This document shows, one piece after another, positions 30,812 to 61,235 of a DNA stretch of 64,000 nt; within the stretch, counting starts at the first letter, position 1; each line of letters opens with the position of its first letter. This DNA is from Teretinema zuelzerae (GTDB taxonomy: Bacteria > Spirochaetota > Spirochaetia > Treponematales > Treponemataceae). The notes beneath the pieces are model-generated. The model made no database searches. It was not told where the DNA came from and saw only the letters and a program-made list of their open reading frames with translations. Both the position numbers and the translations under genes were made by a program. The stretch covers positions 186,001 to 250,000 of the forward strand of contig NZ_JAINWA010000003.1 in NCBI RefSeq assembly GCF_021021555.1, given 5' to 3'.

Positions 30812-30832
30812 TTATCAGGGATGAGGACAAAA

Positions 30833-30860
30833 AAAAGACCACGTAAATACGTGGTCTTTT
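30833..30860. terminator. Bidirectional terminator, displaced from tRNA-Val
   Basis: A perfect 12-bp stem AAAAGACCACGT / ACGTGGTCTTTT with loop AAAT. It directly abuts the left attachment repeat. In the uninterrupted chromosome it would lie at the 3' end of tRNA-Val; after integration it is about 29.5 kb away from the tRNA. Confidence 0.85.
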
Positions 30861-30902
30861 GGGCGCTGAGGGGATCGAACCCCCGACATTCTGGGTGTAA
30901 AC
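30858..30902. repeat. attL: 45-bp duplicate of the tRNA-Val 3' part
   Basis: Identical over 45 bp to 60344-60388 and in the same orientation. It covers the tRNA 3' end back to the anticodon loop (GTGTAAAC end), after which the two copies diverge. Marks the left prophage boundary. It is only a tRNA fragment and cannot be a functional tRNA. Confidence 0.93.
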
Positions 30903-30998
30903 TCATTCCCGCCTTGCGACATAGGCTTATTACCAGTAAATAGAATAGTATAATATAGAAGAATAAATCAATACCTGTAAATGAAATATTTATATTGT

Positions 30999-31018
30999 GG
31001 CACAATTTTGACACACAA
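30999..31018 (+). repeat. Candidate integrase arm-type site, left end
   Basis: GGCACAATTTTGACACACAA occurs here and again, exactly, at 60260-60279 in the same orientation. An inverted relative (GTGTGCCAGAATTGTGCC) lies at 31061-31078, and a short palindrome of the same words at 60248-60265. Placement at both prophage ends outside genes fits attP arm sites. Confidence 0.6.
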
Positions 31019-31078
31019 GACATTCTGGTAAGTGAGACAGCCGGCACAAAGGCGTTTTTAGTGTGCCAGAATTGTGCC

Positions 31079-31121
31079 AAAAAAAAGGAGAAATCCGGCC
31101 AACCTTATGCCGAATTTCTCC
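31079..31121 (-). terminator. Terminator of the late/lysis operon
   Basis: On the minus strand GGAGAAATTCGGC (31109-31121) pairs with GCCGGATTTCTCC (31087-31099), followed by eight T (31079-31086). Lies just after the spanin-like genes and ends leftward late transcription before attL. Confidence 0.88.
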
Positions 31122-56117: not shown

Positions 56118-56855
56118 TTACGCCAGTACCGGGATTGCTACATCAGAGACGATGCTTTGTTCGATGTAGTCCTTGATCGCCAGAATGGCGTTATTCCTCC
56201 AGATTCCGCCTTCCGCGTCGAAAAGGGCTATCCGGGGGAGGCCGTTTTCGGTTGGCTTGAAGCGAAGGATAAAGCTTGCTTCCGGCTGTTCTACTTCCCG
56301 GAACGTCCGGTACGGACGGAGCCGATAGATACCCTTGGTTTCGACAGAATCCTTTGCCGCCCCGGAAACACCGCGGCGAACCTGAATCTCTTGCGAAAGG
56401 CCGTCATCCTGAGTAATCACCTCGTTTTGGGCGACTACCTTGCTGGCCATTGCAATAACGATATCAAGGTCATTCGATGGACCAATCAGGGCACGAGCTT
56501 TGATACAGAACTCTTCCGGATAGATAAACGAGTCGAACGGAAATTCCGGAAGGTCATCGTCCAATTTTGCCTGGTAGAAACAGGAACGTTTCAGGTCTTC
56601 ATCGTCGAAACGGGCATACAGCCGAACCGAATGGTGCGATTCTATCTGAATCATGCACTGGTCAAGCTGGACTTGTTCCCGGTTATTCTTGATGTAATCA
56701 AGAAGGCCGGTAAGGGTGTAACCCCGGAGGGTGTCCGGGCGCGGGCAGAACATTACGGGTTTGTATTCTTTTCGGGCGAACGTGGTTCCGCATATTTCGA
56801 GCGTCTGGTTTTCGTCGGCGAGTCGCTCGATCTCTTTTACAGCTGAGCCGTCCAT
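56118..56855 (-). CDS. Conserved early phage protein, 245 aa
   Basis: The pattern GYTLTGLLDYIKNN, LRPYRTFREVEQPEASFILR and LFDAEGGIWRNNAILAIKDYIE matches a family I recall from temperate phages of Firmicutes, of unknown function, normally paired with the gene before it. Starts by TGATG overlap with that gene. Confidence 0.6.
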   Translation of the reverse strand: MDGSAVKEIERLADENQTLEICGTTFARKEYKPVMFCPRPDTLRGYTLTGLLDYIKNNREQVQLDQCMIQIESHHSVRLYARFDDEDLKRSCFYQAKLDDDLPEFPFDSFIYPEEFCIKARALIGPSNDLDIVIAMASKVVAQNEVITQDDGLSQEIQVRRGVSGAAKDSVETKGIYRLRPYRTFREVEQPEASFILRFKPTENGLPRIALFDAEGGIWRNNAILAIKDYIEQSIVSDVAIPVLA

Positions 56856-57211
56856 CAGTTCTCTCCTACTGTTCGTCTTTCAAACGGGATCGGATTGATT
56901 CCGTCGAGATCGGGTTGATTAATCGGGCCGTTTACATACGCTTCAACAGAGCGGCCATTGAAAGCGAAGGAAACAGTTGATTCATGGGGATTCATGGGCG
57001 CCAGGCTGGAAGATACCTTTACCTTGCTTGTGGCCATGCTCCGATCTGCCATGGGTTTGAGTTCGATCTTTATAGTGATCGCCCTCACAGCGGTTGGGGA
57101 TGTATTATCATCCGCGATGTTTTTTAACGCTTTTTCGAACTCTTCCTCGAAAAGCTCCAGGACGGCTCCGCTATTCAGGGTTGAAAGCGTCACCAGTCGG
57201 TCGTTCTGCAT
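56855..57211 (-). CDS. Conserved early phage protein of the kind labelled replication terminator protein
   Basis: 118 aa, first protein gene of early operon I, after AGGAGGT. LNSGAVLELFEEEFEKALKNIADDNTSPTAVRAITIKIELKP and a later MNPHESTVSFAF give the usual pattern of this family. The name is a database label for relatives; no biochemical evidence is known to me. The upstream 230 nt are non-coding leader. Confidence 0.55.
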   Translation of the reverse strand: MQNDRLVTLSTLNSGAVLELFEEEFEKALKNIADDNTSPTAVRAITIKIELKPMADRSMATSKVKVSSSLAPMNPHESTVSFAFNGRSVEAYVNGPINQPDLDGINPIPFERRTVGEN

Positions 57212-57213
57212 AC

Positions 57214-57387
57214 TTACCTACCTCCTAAAAAGAAGCTGTTGCCTGGGACCGGGGGGATTCGAACCCCCTGATCTTCTGATCCAAAGAAGTAAAACGCCGA
57301 TGTACAGTCCCGAAAAAAAGAAAAGGTCAGATGTTCGTCACAGCAAAGATCGCCCCCGGTTCGCCCGGGCAGTGCCGTAAAAAACAT
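57214..57387 (-). CDS. Doubtful leader ORF, 57 codons
   Basis: ATG at 57387 has GGAGG 10 nt upstream and the frame is open to 57214. However, its coding part is the hairpin and the tRNA-like sequence, and GSEDQGVRIPPVPGN is the kind of peptide produced by reading through a tRNA. If translated it would act as a leader peptide that melts the hairpin. More likely a by-product of the RNA structures. Confidence 0.25.
   Translation of the reverse strand: MFFTALPGRTGGDLCCDEHLTFSFFRDCTSAFYFFGSEDQGVRIPPVPGNSFFLGGR
57244..57311 (-). ncRNA. tRNA-like element in the early leader
   Basis: 68 nt that fold like a tRNA: acceptor GGGACTG (57305-57311) with CGGTCCC (57245-57251), one G-U pair, then unpaired A; a perfect T-arm GGGGG-TTCGAAT-CCCCC (57252-57268); anticodon stem CTTCT/AGAAG with a seven-base loop TTGGATC (formal anticodon GGA, Ser). 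The D-arm space is only 13 nt with no good stem, and position 37 is a T. Either a degenerate phage tRNA, a tRNA mimic or a relic of an older attachment site. Confidence 0.5.
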
Positions 57388-57397
57388 CTGACCTTTT
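57321..57397 (-). terminator. Long perfect hairpin with U-tract in the PR leader
   Basis: On the minus strand AAAAGGTCAGATGTT (57383-57397) pairs over 15 bp with AACATCTGACCTTTT (57321-57335), enclosing an inner CCCGG/CCGGG hairpin, followed by CTTTTTTT. An early terminator or attenuator about 120 nt after the start of PR; it predicts antitermination or a short abundant leader RNA. Confidence 0.7.
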
Positions 57398-57423
57398 CCT
57401 CCGGTGCGATTTGCCGGATTAAA

Positions 57424-57502
57424 ACTACCCAAATCAGTAGTTTTATTCATCGTACTACCGATTTAAGTACTTGTCAACAAGGAAAATACTGAAATTAGTA
57501 GT
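57424..57502. promoter_or_regulatory. Three repressor operators O1-O3
   Basis: 18-bp sites at 57424-57441 (ACTACCCAAATCAGTAGT), 57454-57471 (ACTACCGATTTAAGTACT) and 57485-57502 (AATACTGAAATTAGTAGT). Centres are 30 and 31 bp apart, about three helical turns, so all face the same side of the DNA. O1 covers the start of PR, O2 lies between its -35 and -10, and O3 covers the -35 of the repressor promoter. Confidence 0.75.
57449..57477 (-). promoter_or_regulatory. PR: promoter of early operon I
   Basis: On the minus strand TTGACA (57472-57477), exactly 17 bp, TACGAT (57449-57454); start near 57442. Operator O2 fills the spacer. Confidence 0.72.
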
Positions 57503-57517
57503 TTTCTGTACGATAAT
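57489..57517 (+). promoter_or_regulatory. PRM-like promoter of the repressor, leaderless geometry
   Basis: CTGAAA (57489-57494), 17 bp, GATAAT (57512-57517), then 6 nt to the repressor ATG; no Shine-Dalgarno sequence. As for lambda PRM, the message would start at the AUG. Confidence 0.55.
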
Positions 57518-57523
57518 GAAAGC

Positions 57524-57871
57524 ATGAACTTTTGGAATCGCACAAAAGTTGAAGTTGAAAAACAGAACACAACTTTTAGATGGATAGCTGAGAAACTCGG
57601 AATACCGGAAACGACAATCTCCGGATGGCGTAAACAAGATATCTTGCCACGCGCAGATATTGCTGTAGAAATTGCTGGTTTATTCGGTGTTTCAGTTGAA
57701 TACCTGGTTACTGGCGCAGATCGACAGGTAAAAGTATTAAGAGATAGCGAAAAAGAAATTATTAATTTTATGCATGACCTTTCCGAAGATGATATAGAAG
57801 TTCTTCTCTGTACTGTAAAGGCCCTTGGAAAAAGAAAAGCTATTGATCTTTCAACCCAAACGGCTGGGTAA
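57524..57871 (+). CDS. Prophage repressor, XRE-type, without peptidase domain
   Basis: 115 aa. Helix-turn-helix at about 16-60 (TFRWIAEKLGIPETTISGWRKQDILPRADIAVEIAGLFGVSVEYL), then a 50-residue helical tail for dimerisation (DSEKEIINFMHDLSEDDIEVLLCTVKAL). There is no S24/LexA-like peptidase domain, so RecA-stimulated self-cleavage is not expected and an antirepressor is the probable inducer. Divergent from early operon I with the operators between. Confidence 0.88.
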   Translation: MNFWNRTKVEVEKQNTTFRWIAEKLGIPETTISGWRKQDILPRADIAVEIAGLFGVSVEYLVTGADRQVKVLRDSEKEIINFMHDLSEDDIEVLLCTVKALGKRKAIDLSTQTAG

Positions 57872-58052
57872 AAGCGGGGGAAAGGTTTTCAAAAAAATGT
57901 GTCACTATTGACAATTAAAATTACTGACGATCATTACAACAGACGTATTATCTGACCTACTAATCCGATTTACTGCATTTAAATCTATACTATATAAAGA
58001 AATAAGCAACCGCGCAAACGGTGCATAATTTAACATATTGGAGATTTTGAAA
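57872..58052 (+). promoter_or_regulatory. Intergenic region before the lysogeny membrane-protein gene
   Basis: About 180 nt, AT-rich. Two possible promoters face right: TTGACA near 57912 with an AT-rich region 17 bp on, and a TATACTATAT-rich stretch near 57985-57998. This would let the next gene be expressed in the lysogen independently of the repressor. Confidence 0.4.
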
Positions 58053-58973
58053 ATGGAAGAACTGGTAATTTCGGATTATTCGCAGATGAATTCGCTTTTT
58101 CAACAACTAACAACCGATGTGAGTTGGTTTGAAAACAAGGAAGTCAAACTCAGTGACTCTTTGGGAGGATTCAAGATTCATGTTGAAGGCGATGTTTTTG
58201 ACTCGACTATAACTACAGGAATAATGCGTGGTATGCTAAGCTTGCAAAACGCAGTATATGATGCATACTCTCATTATTGTTATGGCTATGTTAAGCGTCT
58301 TTCTGATGAAGAAAGGAAAATGTTGGAAATCCGAGTTAAAATTGAACCGGGTTCGTCGTACATTGAGATTTTAATTAAAGATATTGCAAAGGCTGTGGGA
58401 GACAGAATAAGGACAATGACCACAAAAGAATTTATTGCTTCAGTAGCGATTGTTTCTACCATTGCAGCTGTCAGCCTCAATGTGGGTAAACACATTGATT
58501 CAAAAAAAGAGATTGCCCGAATACAGGCACAAAACGAGCTGGTAACTGATGTCCAAAAAACGACTAATGAGGTTGCAATAGCAGCTCTTGAGGCACAGTC
58601 CAGTTTCTATAGATCAATGTCGAAACAGGATTTTACGTCTTTCTCAATAAACAATGAAACTGTTACTCCTGTAGAAATTGCAGAAATGACGAAAATTACA
58701 AGAGAAAAAAGACCTGTTGAGCAAGTTGTTTATAAAGGGAAATTTACCATCACCGATATACATTTTGAAGAAGAGACAATTTATCTCGACGTTATTAATC
58801 CTACCGATGGTAAAACTATAAAGTATGTGAATATCTTCAAAGACATCGTAACAGAGGATGATTACCAATGGTTTAAAGATTCTGCAAACAGGCAATCAAT
58901 AGATATGACGATTGTTGCAACGGAAAAGAAAGGTGAAATAATCGGGGCCTTCCTTCAGAGCTTCAAAAAGTAA
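58053..58973 (+). CDS. Unknown membrane protein of the lysogeny block
   Basis: 306 aa; ATG at 58053 with GGAG 9 nt upstream (a TTG at 58038 lies before that site). N-terminal domain of about 110 residues (FKIHVEGDVFDSTITTGIMRGMLSLQNAVYDAYSHY), one transmembrane helix at about 137-158 (FIASVAIVSTIAAVSLNVG), a coiled segment, and a C-terminal beta domain (YKGKFTITDIHFEEETIYLDV). Position between repressor and integrase, own promoter and own terminator mark it as cargo expressed in the lysogen, typical for superinfection exclusion or anti-phage defence. No known defence motif recognised. Confidence 0.65.
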   Translation: MEELVISDYSQMNSLFQQLTTDVSWFENKEVKLSDSLGGFKIHVEGDVFDSTITTGIMRGMLSLQNAVYDAYSHYCYGYVKRLSDEERKMLEIRVKIEPGSSYIEILIKDIAKAVGDRIRTMTTKEFIASVAIVSTIAAVSLNVGKHIDSKKEIARIQAQNELVTDVQKTTNEVAIAALEAQSSFYRSMSKQDFTSFSINNETVTPVEIAEMTKITREKRPVEQVVYKGKFTITDIHFEEETIYLDVINPTDGKTIKYVNIFKDIVTEDDYQWFKDSANRQSIDMTIVATEKKGEIIGAFLQSFKK

Positions 58974-58992
58974 GAAATCTGTAAAACACAAA

Positions 58993-59020
58993 AGGCCGGG
59001 TCTCCCCGGCCTCTTTTTTT
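58993..59020. terminator. Terminator between the lysogeny gene and integrase
   Basis: AGGCCGGG (58993-59000), loop TCTC, CCCGGCCT (59005-59012), then CTTTTTTT. Serves the rightward gene; on the other strand it follows the integrase stop with a shorter U-run. Confidence 0.85.
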
Positions 59021-60221
59021 ATCCCAACTTCCAGAATCCATTCACCGCAGGCAGGACTTTATCCCGGTATTCGTCCAGGCGTTCTTCAAGGACAGGGCGG
59101 TCATAGTGGTCCGTCATGCTGTCGGTTTTATGACCGATGATATCCCGGAGCATTTCGCGCGGGATCGCGTTTTTCATCCTGGTGTTATAGGTATACCGAA
59201 GTCCGTGGAAGGTTATCCGCCGGCCGGAAAGATCGATTCCGGCTTTTTTCATCGCCGCGCGAAACCGCTTCAAAAGATACCCTGATGAAATACTATGCCC
59301 GCGGTAGGTGAACAATAACCCCGGGTGATCGCCCCGGAGCTCTATCCAGCGCGTCAAAATGCTCATTGTATATACCGACATCGGAACAACCCGGATACGT
59401 GGATCAGCGGCGCTTCCCTTCTTAACATGATCGGTTTTTCCCTTTTCATCCAGGGCGCGGTCAATAATCAGCCCCTTCCCCGGAACGATCTGATCCATGG
59501 AAAGAGCCAGTGATTCGCCGGATCTGAGACCGCAGGATACCGCGATCGCCGAGAGTGTCGCAAAACACCGCCCCGGAATGGGGTCCCCTTCGTCGCTATC
59601 GGTTTCCCAGACTTTCCCGAATTCCTCCGGAGCAAACGGGAATAATCGTTGTAATTCCTGTTCGGTAAGGGTGTTCTGTCGCTTCGAATTGCGGGCATAT
59701 GTAACGAATGTCGGGACAGAAGGAATCAAGCCGTCGAAATGGGCTTCCCTGAGAATAATCATAAGGGTGTCTTTTATGGAGTTCTTCGCAGATCCTGATA
59801 GCGGCCTGGACGGCTTCTCGTTTCGTCCGATTGTCCGGGCGTCGAGCAGATTAAGATCAAGAGCCTTCGCCGTGATAGAGTCCAGGAACGAGCTTCCAAA
59901 CCACGGAATGAGATAGTTTTTCAGGTAGGCATGATGATTGGCCAGCGTGCGGTTTTTGGGATTCTTCCCATGTTTATTCCACCGCTTCACGATAGGACCT
60001 TTCGGATCAAAGAACTTTTCAGCGTAATCCAGGAACAAGGTTCTTTCCGAATTCCGCCTCTTTTGTTCTTCAAGAATTTCAAGACGCGCCAGAAAAGCCT
60101 TTGCGTCAGACCTTTTTGAACAGCCGGTTGACCGGCGGACGCGCTTCCCGTTCTCATCGATGTAGTGGAAATAAAAAAACGTTTGGCCATTTACCAAACG
60201 CTCGTACAGGGTGTATTCCAT
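59019..60221 (-). CDS. int: Tyrosine site-specific integrase
   Basis: 400 aa. Catalyses integration at tRNA-Val and, with a helper, excision. N-terminal arm-binding and core-binding domains (to about 180), catalytic domain with the first arginine in SCGLRSGESLAL, the lysine region near KKGSAADPRIRVVPM, H-x-x-R in FHGLRYTYN, and the late histidine and tyrosine in IIGHKTDSMTDHYDR. The gene lies 125 nt from attR. The Shine-Dalgarno sequence AAGGA sits in the loop of a small palindrome ACCGTAAGGACGGT (60227-60240). Confidence 0.95.
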   Translation of the reverse strand: MEYTLYERLVNGQTFFYFHYIDENGKRVRRSTGCSKRSDAKAFLARLEILEEQKRRNSERTLFLDYAEKFFDPKGPIVKRWNKHGKNPKNRTLANHHAYLKNYLIPWFGSSFLDSITAKALDLNLLDARTIGRNEKPSRPLSGSAKNSIKDTLMIILREAHFDGLIPSVPTFVTYARNSKRQNTLTEQELQRLFPFAPEEFGKVWETDSDEGDPIPGRCFATLSAIAVSCGLRSGESLALSMDQIVPGKGLIIDRALDEKGKTDHVKKGSAADPRIRVVPMSVYTMSILTRWIELRGDHPGLLFTYRGHSISSGYLLKRFRAAMKKAGIDLSGRRITFHGLRYTYNTRMKNAIPREMLRDIIGHKTDSMTDHYDRPVLEERLDEYRDKVLPAVNGFWKLG

Positions 60222-60259
60222 TGTAAACCGTCCTTACGGTCAAAACTGTGCCGAAACTT

Positions 60260-60279
60260 GGCACAATTTTGACACACAA
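60260..60279 (+). repeat. Candidate integrase arm-type site, right end
   Basis: Second exact copy of GGCACAATTTTGACACACAA (first at 30999-31018), lying between the integrase start and attR. An overlapping palindrome TGTGCC...GGCACA lies at 60248-60265. Confidence 0.6.
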
Positions 60280-60304
60280 AAAGATGCGGCAACAGCTTCT
60301 TTTT
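60278..60304 (-). terminator. Phage-supplied terminator for tRNA-Val
   Basis: On the minus strand AAAAAGAAGC (60295-60304), loop, GCATCTTTTT (60278-60287); nine of ten positions pair and the 3' arm is a U-run. It stands 42 nt after the tRNA 3' end, replacing the host terminator now at 30833-30860. Confidence 0.6.
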
Positions 60305-60343
60305 GCAAGGCAGTTTTTTTTCCTTACATAGTAAGGATTTAAC

Positions 60344-60388
60344 TTTGGGCGCTGAGGGGATCGAACCCCCGACATTCTGGGTGTAAAC
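60344..60388. repeat. attR: 45-bp repeat within the restored tRNA-Val
   Basis: Exact copy of 30858-30902. Here it continues into the tRNA 5' half, so integration keeps a complete tRNA at this end. Confidence 0.93.
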
Positions 60389-60419
60389 CAGACGCTCGTA
60401 CCAGCTGAGCTAAGCGCCC
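60346..60419 (-). tRNA. tRNA-Val (anticodon UAC)
   Basis: 74 nt. Acceptor GGGCGCT/AGCGCCC with discriminator A, D-arm GCTC...GAGC, anticodon stem TCTGG/CCAGA with loop TTTACAC (anticodon TAC), T-arm CGGGG/CCCCT-type with TTCGATC. CCA is not encoded. It is the prophage attachment gene and stays intact, its 3' half now supplied by the phage copy. Confidence 0.95.
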
Positions 60420-60429
60420 GATAAACAAG

Positions 60430-60458
60430 AATCTATCAGATCGAATAAAAAAGGTCAA
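60430..60458 (-). promoter_or_regulatory. Promoter of tRNA-Val
   Basis: On the minus strand TTGACC (60453-60458), 17 bp, TAGATT (60430-60435), about 11 nt before the tRNA 5' end. Confidence 0.6.
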
Positions 60459-60464
60459 GAGATG

Positions 60465-61235
60465 TCAATTGTCGGTAATTATGATCGATCCCATGGTAAA
60501 CGAGGGACTGTAAATGCTGTTATACGTCGCATCGGTTCCATACGCGAATACGAGTGCGAGAACGTGCCATTTATCTGTCTCAACAGAAGAAGTATAGGTG
60601 ACGTCGTCGTCGTCTGTGTCGATTTCGTCGTAACTGAATAGATAGTCGTCGCTTGACGCGTCGGTTACCCCTTCAGAATTGGTGCGCAAGGGAATTCCCA
60701 AATCGAAAGAAGTAGTAAGCAACCCCGCCAATTGTTCGTCTTGATCCGCGGCACTGGTTATTCCGAGATTTCCGACGAAAATTCTTGACGGAACATTGTC
60801 GGTATATTGCGTAAATCTGATATACACTTCGCGGTTATCCGAAGCCGAAGGAATTAGAGGATACTCGTTTACACGTACACTGTTCGCCATGCGGTGAAAT
60901 TTTTTGGTATTCGAAAGCCAGTTTTGGATAAGCCCGTCGTAGCTTTCATAGTAGGTGCTGATGGCCGCAATGTCCTGGTTTCGCGCGCTCGAGCTGTTGT
61001 ATATGCGATAATATACTTCGAAACCCCTGAAGCTGTCCGGTTCTTCAGCCTGATTGCGCGAATCGCTCGTTCTCACGTGGAAATATTGGGCGCTTACGTC
61101 TTCTGAATCCGTCGGATTATTCAGCTGCTGCGATACGGGAAAAAGATAGATATAATTATCTATTCCGCAACTTTGAAGAAACACCGCGAGAGAAACAATG
61201 AAAAGAGAAGAAAGTACTGATCGAATATGAATCAC
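60465..61235 (-). CDS. Lipoprotein of unknown function
   Basis: 256 aa from GTG at 61235 (GTGA overlap with the cyclase stop). Signal peptide with lipobox (SLFIVSLAVFLQSC). The mature part is rich in Tyr, Ser, Asp and Asn, with an acidic run (DEIDTDDDDVTY). No family recognised. The coupling to the cyclase gene suggests a shared envelope sensing role, unproven. Confidence 0.6.
   Translation of the reverse strand: MIHIRSVLSSLFIVSLAVFLQSCGIDNYIYLFPVSQQLNNPTDSEDVSAQYFHVRTSDSRNQAEEPDSFRGFEVYYRIYNSSSARNQDIAAISTYYESYDGLIQNWLSNTKKFHRMANSVRVNEYPLIPSASDNREVYIRFTQYTDNVPSRIFVGNLGITSAADQDEQLAGLLTTSFDLGIPLRTNSEGVTDASSDDYLFSYDEIDTDDDDVTYTSSVETDKWHVLALVFAYGTDATYNSIYSPSFTMGSIIITDN

What the first reader, a model, noticed from the sequence alone, without database searches (positions are those of the whole stretch)
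57212..57442. Early leader with a 15-bp terminator hairpin followed by a tRNA-like RNA
Between PR and the first early gene lie about 230 nt containing a perfect long hairpin with U-tract and then a 68-nt element with tRNA acceptor, T-arm and anticodon arm but almost no D-arm. This could be an attenuator with a tRNA mimic that recruits a host factor (RNase P, a synthetase or EF-Tu), a phage antitermination RNA, or a relic of an older tRNA attachment. I know of no described phage switch with this pairing.
Basis: partly seen in the sequence, partly recalled or inferred. Interest (0 to 1): 0.75.

Follow-up and report, generated by a model that had tools for sequence, protein, structure and literature searches.

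The report
Phage early leader with tRNA-like RNA
The first lytic message of a Treponema-type prophage starts with a long hairpin and a stripped-down tRNA look-alike that ends exactly where a stretch complementary to the integrase message begins, which suggests an RNA-based switch, so far supported only by sequence comparison.

Summary
On the minus strand, between PR and the first early gene, lie a 16-bp perfect hairpin plus U7 (57398-57313) and a 68-nt element (57311-57244) that passes Rfam's tRNA cut-off (32.7 against 29 bits). One other genome carries this leader (Treponema sp. MAG11, cut inside the hairpin). There the acceptor, T stem and a small 4-bp hairpin keep 15 of 16 pairs with three double compensatory changes. 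The "anticodon arm" keeps only 3 of 5 pairs, and the reading frame across it acquires a stop. So this is an acceptor/T-arm mini-tRNA, not a tRNA.

The 26 nt just after the element's 3' end, covering the early SD, are complementary to the integrase leader at attL: 17 bp exact, 24 bp as RNA. Integration removes tRNA-Val's terminator, so the tRNA-Val promoter should drive that antisense RNA in the lysogen.

Best reading: a tRNA-derived RNase P/RNase Z processing element in the early leader, next to a pairing site through which int-leader RNA and early mRNA control each other. The parts are shown; processing and pairing are inferred. It is a variant of phage RNase P/antisense immunity leaders.

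The parts
57449..57477 (-). early promoter PR (TTGACA-17-TACGAT)
   Evidence: pattern match 10 of 12; coordinates; three operator-like repeats around it: 57422-57444, 57451-57472, 57486-57505
57383..57398 (-). 5' arm of the 16-bp hairpin; its first base belongs to an SD-like GGAGG (57402-57398), and it holds the ATG (57387-57385) of a short unconserved ORF
57313..57335 (-). 3' arm of the hairpin (57335-57320) and U7 tract (57319-57313); 24 of 24 nt from 57336 to 57313 identical in Treponema sp. MAG11
57244..57311 (-). tRNA-like element: 7-bp acceptor, 4-bp mini hairpin, 5-bp T stem with TTCGAAT loop, discriminator A; no D-arm and no conserved anticodon arm
   Evidence: Rfam 32.7 bits; 55 of 68 nt identical in the relative, 15 of 16 pairs kept, 3 double changes
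57218..57243 (-). pairing segment that starts at the first base after the discriminator and covers the SD GGAGG (57225-57221) of the first early gene; complementary to 60288-60313 (minus-strand RNA)
56855..57211 (-). first early gene, 118 aa, phrog_997 ('replication terminator')
56118..56855 (-). second early gene, 245 aa, phrog_1029 (unknown function)
57524..57871 (+). CI-type repressor (Phage_CI_repr / HTH_3), divergent
60288..60313 (-). antisense segment in the int leader, between tRNA-Val and int; part of a 9-bp hairpin with the core in its loop
60218..60345 (-). int leader RNA, strongly structured (z -6.1); part of this fold comes from inverted integrase arm-type sites, so the z-score is not evidence for RNA alone
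60177..60203 (-). terminator-like hairpin plus T-run inside the first codons of int
59019..60221 (-). tyrosine integrase, 400 aa
60344..60388 (-). attL core inside tRNA-Val (60346-60419); the direct repeat at 30858-30902 is attR
60430..60458 (-). tRNA-Val promoter-like site TTGACC-17-TAGATT
30829..30860 (-). host terminator of tRNA-Val, displaced beyond attR by the integration
30952..30981 (-). promoter-like site pointing across attR; in the circular phage it would face int

Best explanation
This is the structured 5' leader of a prophage's early (PR) mRNA. From 5' to 3' it holds a long hairpin with a U-tract (attenuator), a mini-tRNA (acceptor plus T arm) left from a phage tRNA gene, and a 26-nt single-stranded target that covers the SD of the first early gene. 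Proposed mechanism: host RNase P cuts just after the U-tract and RNase Z just after the discriminator. This separates the terminator hairpin from the message and leaves the coding part starting at GGCAACAGC..., which is the segment that can pair with the leader of the integrase transcript. In a lysogen the tRNA-Val promoter, whose terminator now lies 29 kb away beyond attR, is expected to transcribe that int leader. The RNA would then mask the early SD and back up the CI repressor. Conversely, an early transcript made on induction would open the int leader, whose own fold pairs the int SD. Shown: the anatomy, the conservation and covariation in one relative, the complementarity, the displaced terminator, and the presence of RNase Z in the host. 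Inferred: all cleavage, transcription and pairing.
For: Rfam tRNA match above gathering. Covariation: 15 of 16 pairs kept, 3 double changes; P for at least 3 doubles 0.0017 with the stem substitutions placed at random. The frame across it is not conserved: 1 synonymous, 10 nonsynonymous, 1 stop among 12 changed codons. 24 of 24 and 18 of 18 nt are identical in the hairpin arm plus U-tract and in the pairing segment, against 55 of 68 in the mini-tRNA and 81% in the 738-nt second early gene. Host RNase Z 356.9 bits, over its cut-off; 10 of 10 sampled host tRNA genes encode no CCA, so RNase Z ends are the normal route here. A 17-nt exact complement 3 kb away: longest shared word 8-14 in 2000 shuffles of leader and 57443-60480, 10-16 in 300 shuffles against the whole prophage; the 17-mer occurs exactly twice in the 3.6-Mb genome. 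Net pairing -20.0 kcal/mol against mean -10.1, sd 3.8; 1 of 200 shuffled int leaders does as well. tRNA-Val terminator beyond attR. Relatives carry tRNA genes at the same spot: 88, 30 and 120 nt upstream of the phrog_997 homologue in L068, L150 and L076.
Against: Only two sequences carry the element, and the relative's contig starts inside the hairpin loop, so the 5' arm and the int leader cannot be compared there. With all 13 substitutions spread over all 68 sites the number of kept pairs is not significant (P 0.06 for 16 pairs, 0.17 for 12). Acceptor pair 1 is broken in the relative (A.C). The mini hairpin was chosen after seeing the alignment. The complementarity was noticed by eye before it was tested. 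Relatives with 47-51% identical early proteins (L144-L149) lack the tRNA-like. The leader's centroid fold leaves the acceptor unpaired. No transcript data exist.
Confidence: 0.4

Rival explanations
1. Relic plus attenuator: the tRNA-like is a decaying phage tRNA gene with no present role, and only the hairpin (an intrinsic terminator or RNA-stability element) matters. The complementarity to the int leader is chance.
For: The relative's element no longer matches the tRNA model; one acceptor pair and two of five anticodon-stem pairs are broken there; related phages carry intact tRNA genes nearby.
Against: Two double compensations in the acceptor and T stem (P 0.018 given the stem substitutions); intact T-loop; 18 of 18 identity exactly in the pairing segment; complementarity beyond 2000 local shuffles.
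Confidence: 0.27
2. The repeated 17 nt is a DNA site: a protein (excisionase, repressor or nucleoid protein) binds both near attP and in the early leader, or the inverted pair bounds an invertible segment holding the repressor.
For: The int-side copy lies between the att core and the arm-type integrase sites (60259-60279, repeated at 30998-31018); the two copies are inverted.
Against: The early copy ends at the tRNA-like and covers the SD, downstream of the promoter. Of four mismatches in the 26-nt pair, two are G.U compatible as RNA. No third copy with 2 or fewer mismatches in the window. For inversion, the arms are only 22 of 26 identical.
Confidence: 0.13
3. The mini-tRNA and hairpin recruit a host factor (EF-Tu, RNase P without cleavage) to RNA polymerase, or act in cis as an antitermination RNA like the put sites of HK022.
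For: Position between PR and the first gene, directly after a terminator-like hairpin; acceptor and T arm are the parts that EF-Tu and RNase P bind (recalled, not from a call).
Against: The put sites act before the terminators they suppress (recalled); here the structure follows the hairpin, so it is not yet made when the polymerase reaches the U-tract.
Confidence: 0.1
4. Leader-peptide attenuation: a ribosome that starts at the ATG in the 5' arm (57387, SD 57402-57398) opens the hairpin and allows transcription into the early genes.
For: GGAGG lies 10 nt before an ATG; the frame would run 57 codons to a stop 3 nt before the early ATG.
Against: In the relative the frame stops directly after the U-tract, and the codon changes are nonsynonymous. 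A short 24-25 codon peptide ending there is not excluded, because the relative's 5' part is missing.
Confidence: 0.1

Closest known systems
P4 CI RNA / seqA-seqC immunity
   Same: Untranslated early leader; small RNA made by processing of the primary transcript; antisense pairing in the leader controls early expression (passages of PMC4825925; the RNase P step in P4 is recalled).
   Different: P4 has no protein repressor and uses premature termination within one transcript; here a CI-type repressor with operators is present and the partner RNA comes from the int leader at attL.
P1/P7 C4 antisense RNA and phi80-type M3 RNA (RNase P substrates)
   Same: Phage leader RNA recognised by RNase P (passage of PMC11143913; that M3 is from phi80 is recalled).
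   Different: The C4 precursor is not a covarying acceptor/T-arm mini-tRNA; no sequence relation was found or tested here.
Gifsy-1 IsrK
   Same: Prophage leader with an intrinsic terminator, a small ORF, and RNA that exposes or masks a ribosome site in trans (abstract and passages of PMC4825925).
   Different: No tRNA-like element; both RNAs come from one promoter.
mascRNA/menRNA (RF01684)
   Same: tRNA-like with acceptor and T arm and a reduced rest; the window element aligns at 25.3 bits.
   Different: Below the family's gathering score of 42.5; eukaryotic; function differs.
tRNA-dependent lysogeny and integration-dependent immunity
   Same: Phage tRNA genes, tRNA attachment sites and integration used as part of the lysogeny decision (PMC10865867, abstract read; PMC4557955, listing only).
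   Different: There an intact tRNA replaces a lost host tRNA, or attP sits in the repressor gene; here tRNA-Val is rebuilt and the element cannot decode.

Membership tests
tRNA (Rfam RF00005) | score above the gathering cut-off | tested here: met
   32.7 against 29 bits in the window; the relative's copy has no match up to E 5
tRNA (Rfam RF00005) | D-arm and conserved anticodon arm, decoding ability | tested here: not met
   36 nt between acceptor and T stem, no D-arm; claimed anticodon stem keeps 3 of 5 pairs; not called by ARAGORN
mascRNA-menRNA (RF01684) | score above the gathering cut-off | tested here: not met
   25.3 against 42.5 bits
intrinsic terminator | stable stem directly followed by a U-tract | tested here: met
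   16 bp plus U7; -49.4 kcal/mol for the hairpin
intrinsic terminator | short loop typical of strong terminators | tested here: not met
   47-nt loop, itself folded
RNase P / RNase Z substrate | stacked acceptor and T stems, CCA-less 3' end, host enzymes present | tested here: met
   12 acceptor/T pairs in the window (11 kept in the relative); RNase Z in the genome; RNase P not searched
RNase P / RNase Z substrate | actual cleavage at both ends | not testable with these tools
   needs RNA ends
antisense-regulated phage leader (P4 CI, P1 C4 type) | complementarity between a phage RNA and the early leader beyond chance | tested here: met
   17 nt exact; 0 of 2000 local and 0 of 300 whole-prophage shuffles reach it
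antisense-regulated phage leader (P4 CI, P1 C4 type) | complementarity kept by covariation in relatives | tested here: inconclusive
   the target is identical in the one relative; its int leader is not in the assembly
antisense-regulated phage leader (P4 CI, P1 C4 type) | processed small RNA observed | not testable with these tools
   no transcriptome

The most novel reading that the evidence does not exclude
An integration-dependent RNA immunity switch. Only when the phage is integrated does the host's tRNA-Val promoter, robbed of its terminator, produce an antisense RNA from the int leader that masks the ribosome site of the first lytic gene. That site is released by cleavage at a phage-made mini-tRNA. 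The same pairing, driven from the early side on induction, opens the int message for excision.
Probability: 0.15. Interest if true: 0.88.

Novelty: new variant of a known kind. Interest (0 to 1): 0.6.

Why it matters
Phage lysogeny decisions controlled by processed leader RNAs are known from a few enterobacterial elements. Here is a candidate in spirochaete phages that uses a minimal tRNA as a processing tag and couples integration state to early translation. Related phages carry tRNAs and other D-arm-less mini-tRNAs in early gene gaps, which makes the role of 'odd' phage tRNAs a directly testable question.

Tried and rejected
Protein explanation: the 78-aa frame (57450-57214) starts upstream of the expected transcript start, and its inner part is not conserved; no Pfam or PHROG match for the 57-aa version. 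Att relic: rejected because the att core is in tRNA-Val. Copy of a host tRNA: the best host match is 23 of 25 nt of tRNA-Arg(TCT), T arm and 3' acceptor only; the alignment to host tRNA-Pro is partial. More relatives: exact patterns and the 118-aa protein found none in IMG/VR. 10 and then 80 loci came from the 245-aa protein or its alignment, and 80 of 239 from genome contigs (capped at 80). The family-wide DNA search gave 30 of 274 genomes with a match, of which only the own genome and G009 hold the leader; all 31 listed places were read as rows, and of the others I examined only those whose loci I ran. The model R1 finds full matches only in the window and L064 among 161 sources, and in 7 of 269 genomes; the five weak ones (28.9-32.8 bits) were not examined. 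The two one-mismatch copies of the 17-mer in G001 and G009 lie inside coding frames and were rejected as chance. The integrase upstream regions of three relatives (L236-L238) were read and hold no obvious counterpart. The first pair test used a T stem shifted by one and is superseded (corrected). The first fold was of the wrong strand. No prediction of protein structure was run.

Full report
Where it is. The window lies in a 3.6-Mb genome of a Treponema-like spirochaete; the nearest named relative is Treponema sp. MAG11 (SHOL01000024.1, handle G009). A prophage of about 29.5 kb lies between a 45-nt direct repeat at 30858-30902 and 60344-60388, the 3' part of tRNA-Val. The integrase (59019-60221, minus) sits beside tRNA-Val; a CI-type repressor (57524-57871, plus) faces the early operon (minus), whose first genes belong to phrog_997 and phrog_1029. 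PR (57477-57449) and the repressor promoter are covered by three operator-like repeats.

The hairpin. 16 bp, perfect, 47-nt loop with its own stem, then U7. No other non-palindromic inverted repeat of this size and spacing occurs in the 64 kb. Its 3' arm and U-tract are identical in the relative over 24 of 24 nt. The relative's contig begins inside the loop, so its 5' arm is unknown. A terminator is the natural reading, but the loop is far longer than usual.

The tRNA-like. Rfam's tRNA model scores 57311-57244 at 32.7 bits, over its cut-off. In the relative 13 of 68 nt differ. The acceptor stem keeps 6 of 7 pairs, with A-U to G-C changed on both sides and U.G to U-A on one; the T stem keeps 5 of 5 with one G-C to C-G. 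A 4-bp hairpin (GATC-AGAA-GATC against GACC-AAAC-GGTC) keeps 4 of 4 with one double change. With the stem substitutions placed at random, three double changes in 16 pairs arise with P 0.0017, and two in the 12 acceptor/T pairs with P 0.018. With all substitutions spread over the whole element, the kept-pair count alone is not significant (0.06 and 0.17). This rests on two sequences. The protein frame is not conserved: 1 synonymous, 10 nonsynonymous and one stop change.

How common it is. The covariance model made from the two copies finds full matches only in the window and in L064 among 161 sources. The closest IMG/VR relatives of the early genes (47-51% protein identity, L144-L149) have none. 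By ARAGORN, 21 of 160 related loci (L064-L223) hold at least one tRNA gene (several of these loci are near-duplicates). In three the tRNA ends 30, 88 or 120 nt before the phrog_997 homologue; the one in L068 has an odd four-base anticodon. A scan of 1.25 Mb for a 7-bp acceptor stacked on a TTCRANY T arm gave no hit in shuffled sequence. Besides tRNAs, it gave elements without room for a D-arm or anticodon arm, e.g. L214 2095-2142 (48 nt, 16 nt between stems) and L179 5264-5319. The model adds L158 1674-1727 (54 nt, but only 16.1 bits and E 0.78). The L214 and L158 elements lie in or mostly in gaps between early genes; the L179 element overlaps open frames of unknown reality. I did not measure how often such elements occur in unrelated phages, so no enrichment is claimed.

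The first base after the element's discriminator opens a 26-nt stretch (57243-57218) that covers the SD of the first early gene and is complementary to 60313-60288, in the leader of int on the same strand: 17 nt exact, then a 2x2 mismatch, then 7 pairs of which two are G.U (pairing drawn). The longest shared word in 2000 shuffles of the leader and 57443-60480 was 14, and 16 in 300 shuffles against the whole prophage. Co-folding gains 20.0 kcal/mol; of 200 shuffled int leaders one did as well. The 17-mer occurs exactly twice in the genome. In the relative the early copy is intact (18 of 18 nt), but its int leader is not in the assembly. The int-side copy lies in a structured leader (z -6.1), part of which is explained by inverted integrase arm sites (21-nt repeat at 60259-60279 and 30998-31018). 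A DNA-site reading is therefore not excluded.

Why integration matters. The terminator of tRNA-Val (30860-30833, minus) lies beyond attR, and a promoter-like site at 30981-30952 that would face int in the circular phage stays at attR. In the lysogen the transcript from the tRNA-Val promoter (60458-60430) has no terminator-like site before the antisense segment; the next one is inside int at 60203-60177. This makes an integration-dependent antisense RNA possible; it is inference.

Mechanism and confidence. Host RNase Z is present, and 10 of 10 sampled host tRNA genes need it, as they lack an encoded CCA. I therefore think the mini-tRNA is a processing tag that separates the terminator hairpin from the message and leaves the pairing segment at the new 5' end (0.4 for the whole reading; the switch in its full form 0.15). 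Known neighbours are P4 CI RNA, P1/P7 C4 RNA and IsrK (passages read; otherwise recalled). Searches showed no report of a tRNA-like element in a phage early leader paired with an int leader. They cover only the held open-access library, and I saw listings only, except the papers named here. The Treponema prophage survey PMC11144348 was checked for the words 'leader' and 'antisense' (0 occurrences each).

Noticed in passing
57512-57524 (+): The repressor's promoter-like -10 (GATAAT, ending 57517) lies so close to its ATG (57524) that the repressor mRNA is probably leaderless, as for lambda cI from PRM (recalled).
   Followed up: no
30858-31080 and 60259-60388: att structure: 45-nt core in tRNA-Val, arm-type integrase sites on both sides, and an int promoter-like site that integration separates from int.
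   Followed up: partly
58038-58973 (+): 311-aa gene beside the repressor, phrog_6191, unknown function.
   Followed up: no
L150 3051-3122, L076 2931-3006, L096 527-599, L158 1256-1329, L174 785-860, L159 694-773, L069 1943-2014: Phages with the same early genes repeatedly carry tRNA-Met(CAT) genes in the early region. Several show initiator-like features such as G-C rich anticodon stems; in L150 positions 1 and 72 are A and A.
   Followed up: partly
L214 2095-2142, L179 5264-5319, L158 1674-1727, L189 4650-4735, L089 5749-5840, L096 732-830: Non-canonical tRNA-like elements (acceptor plus T arm, missing or odd middle), mostly in gaps between early genes and on the coding strand.
   Followed up: partly
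L068 2953-3043 (Brucepastera parasyntrophica): tRNA with a four-base anticodon (cccg) between an excisionase-like gene and the phrog_997 homologue.
   Followed up: no
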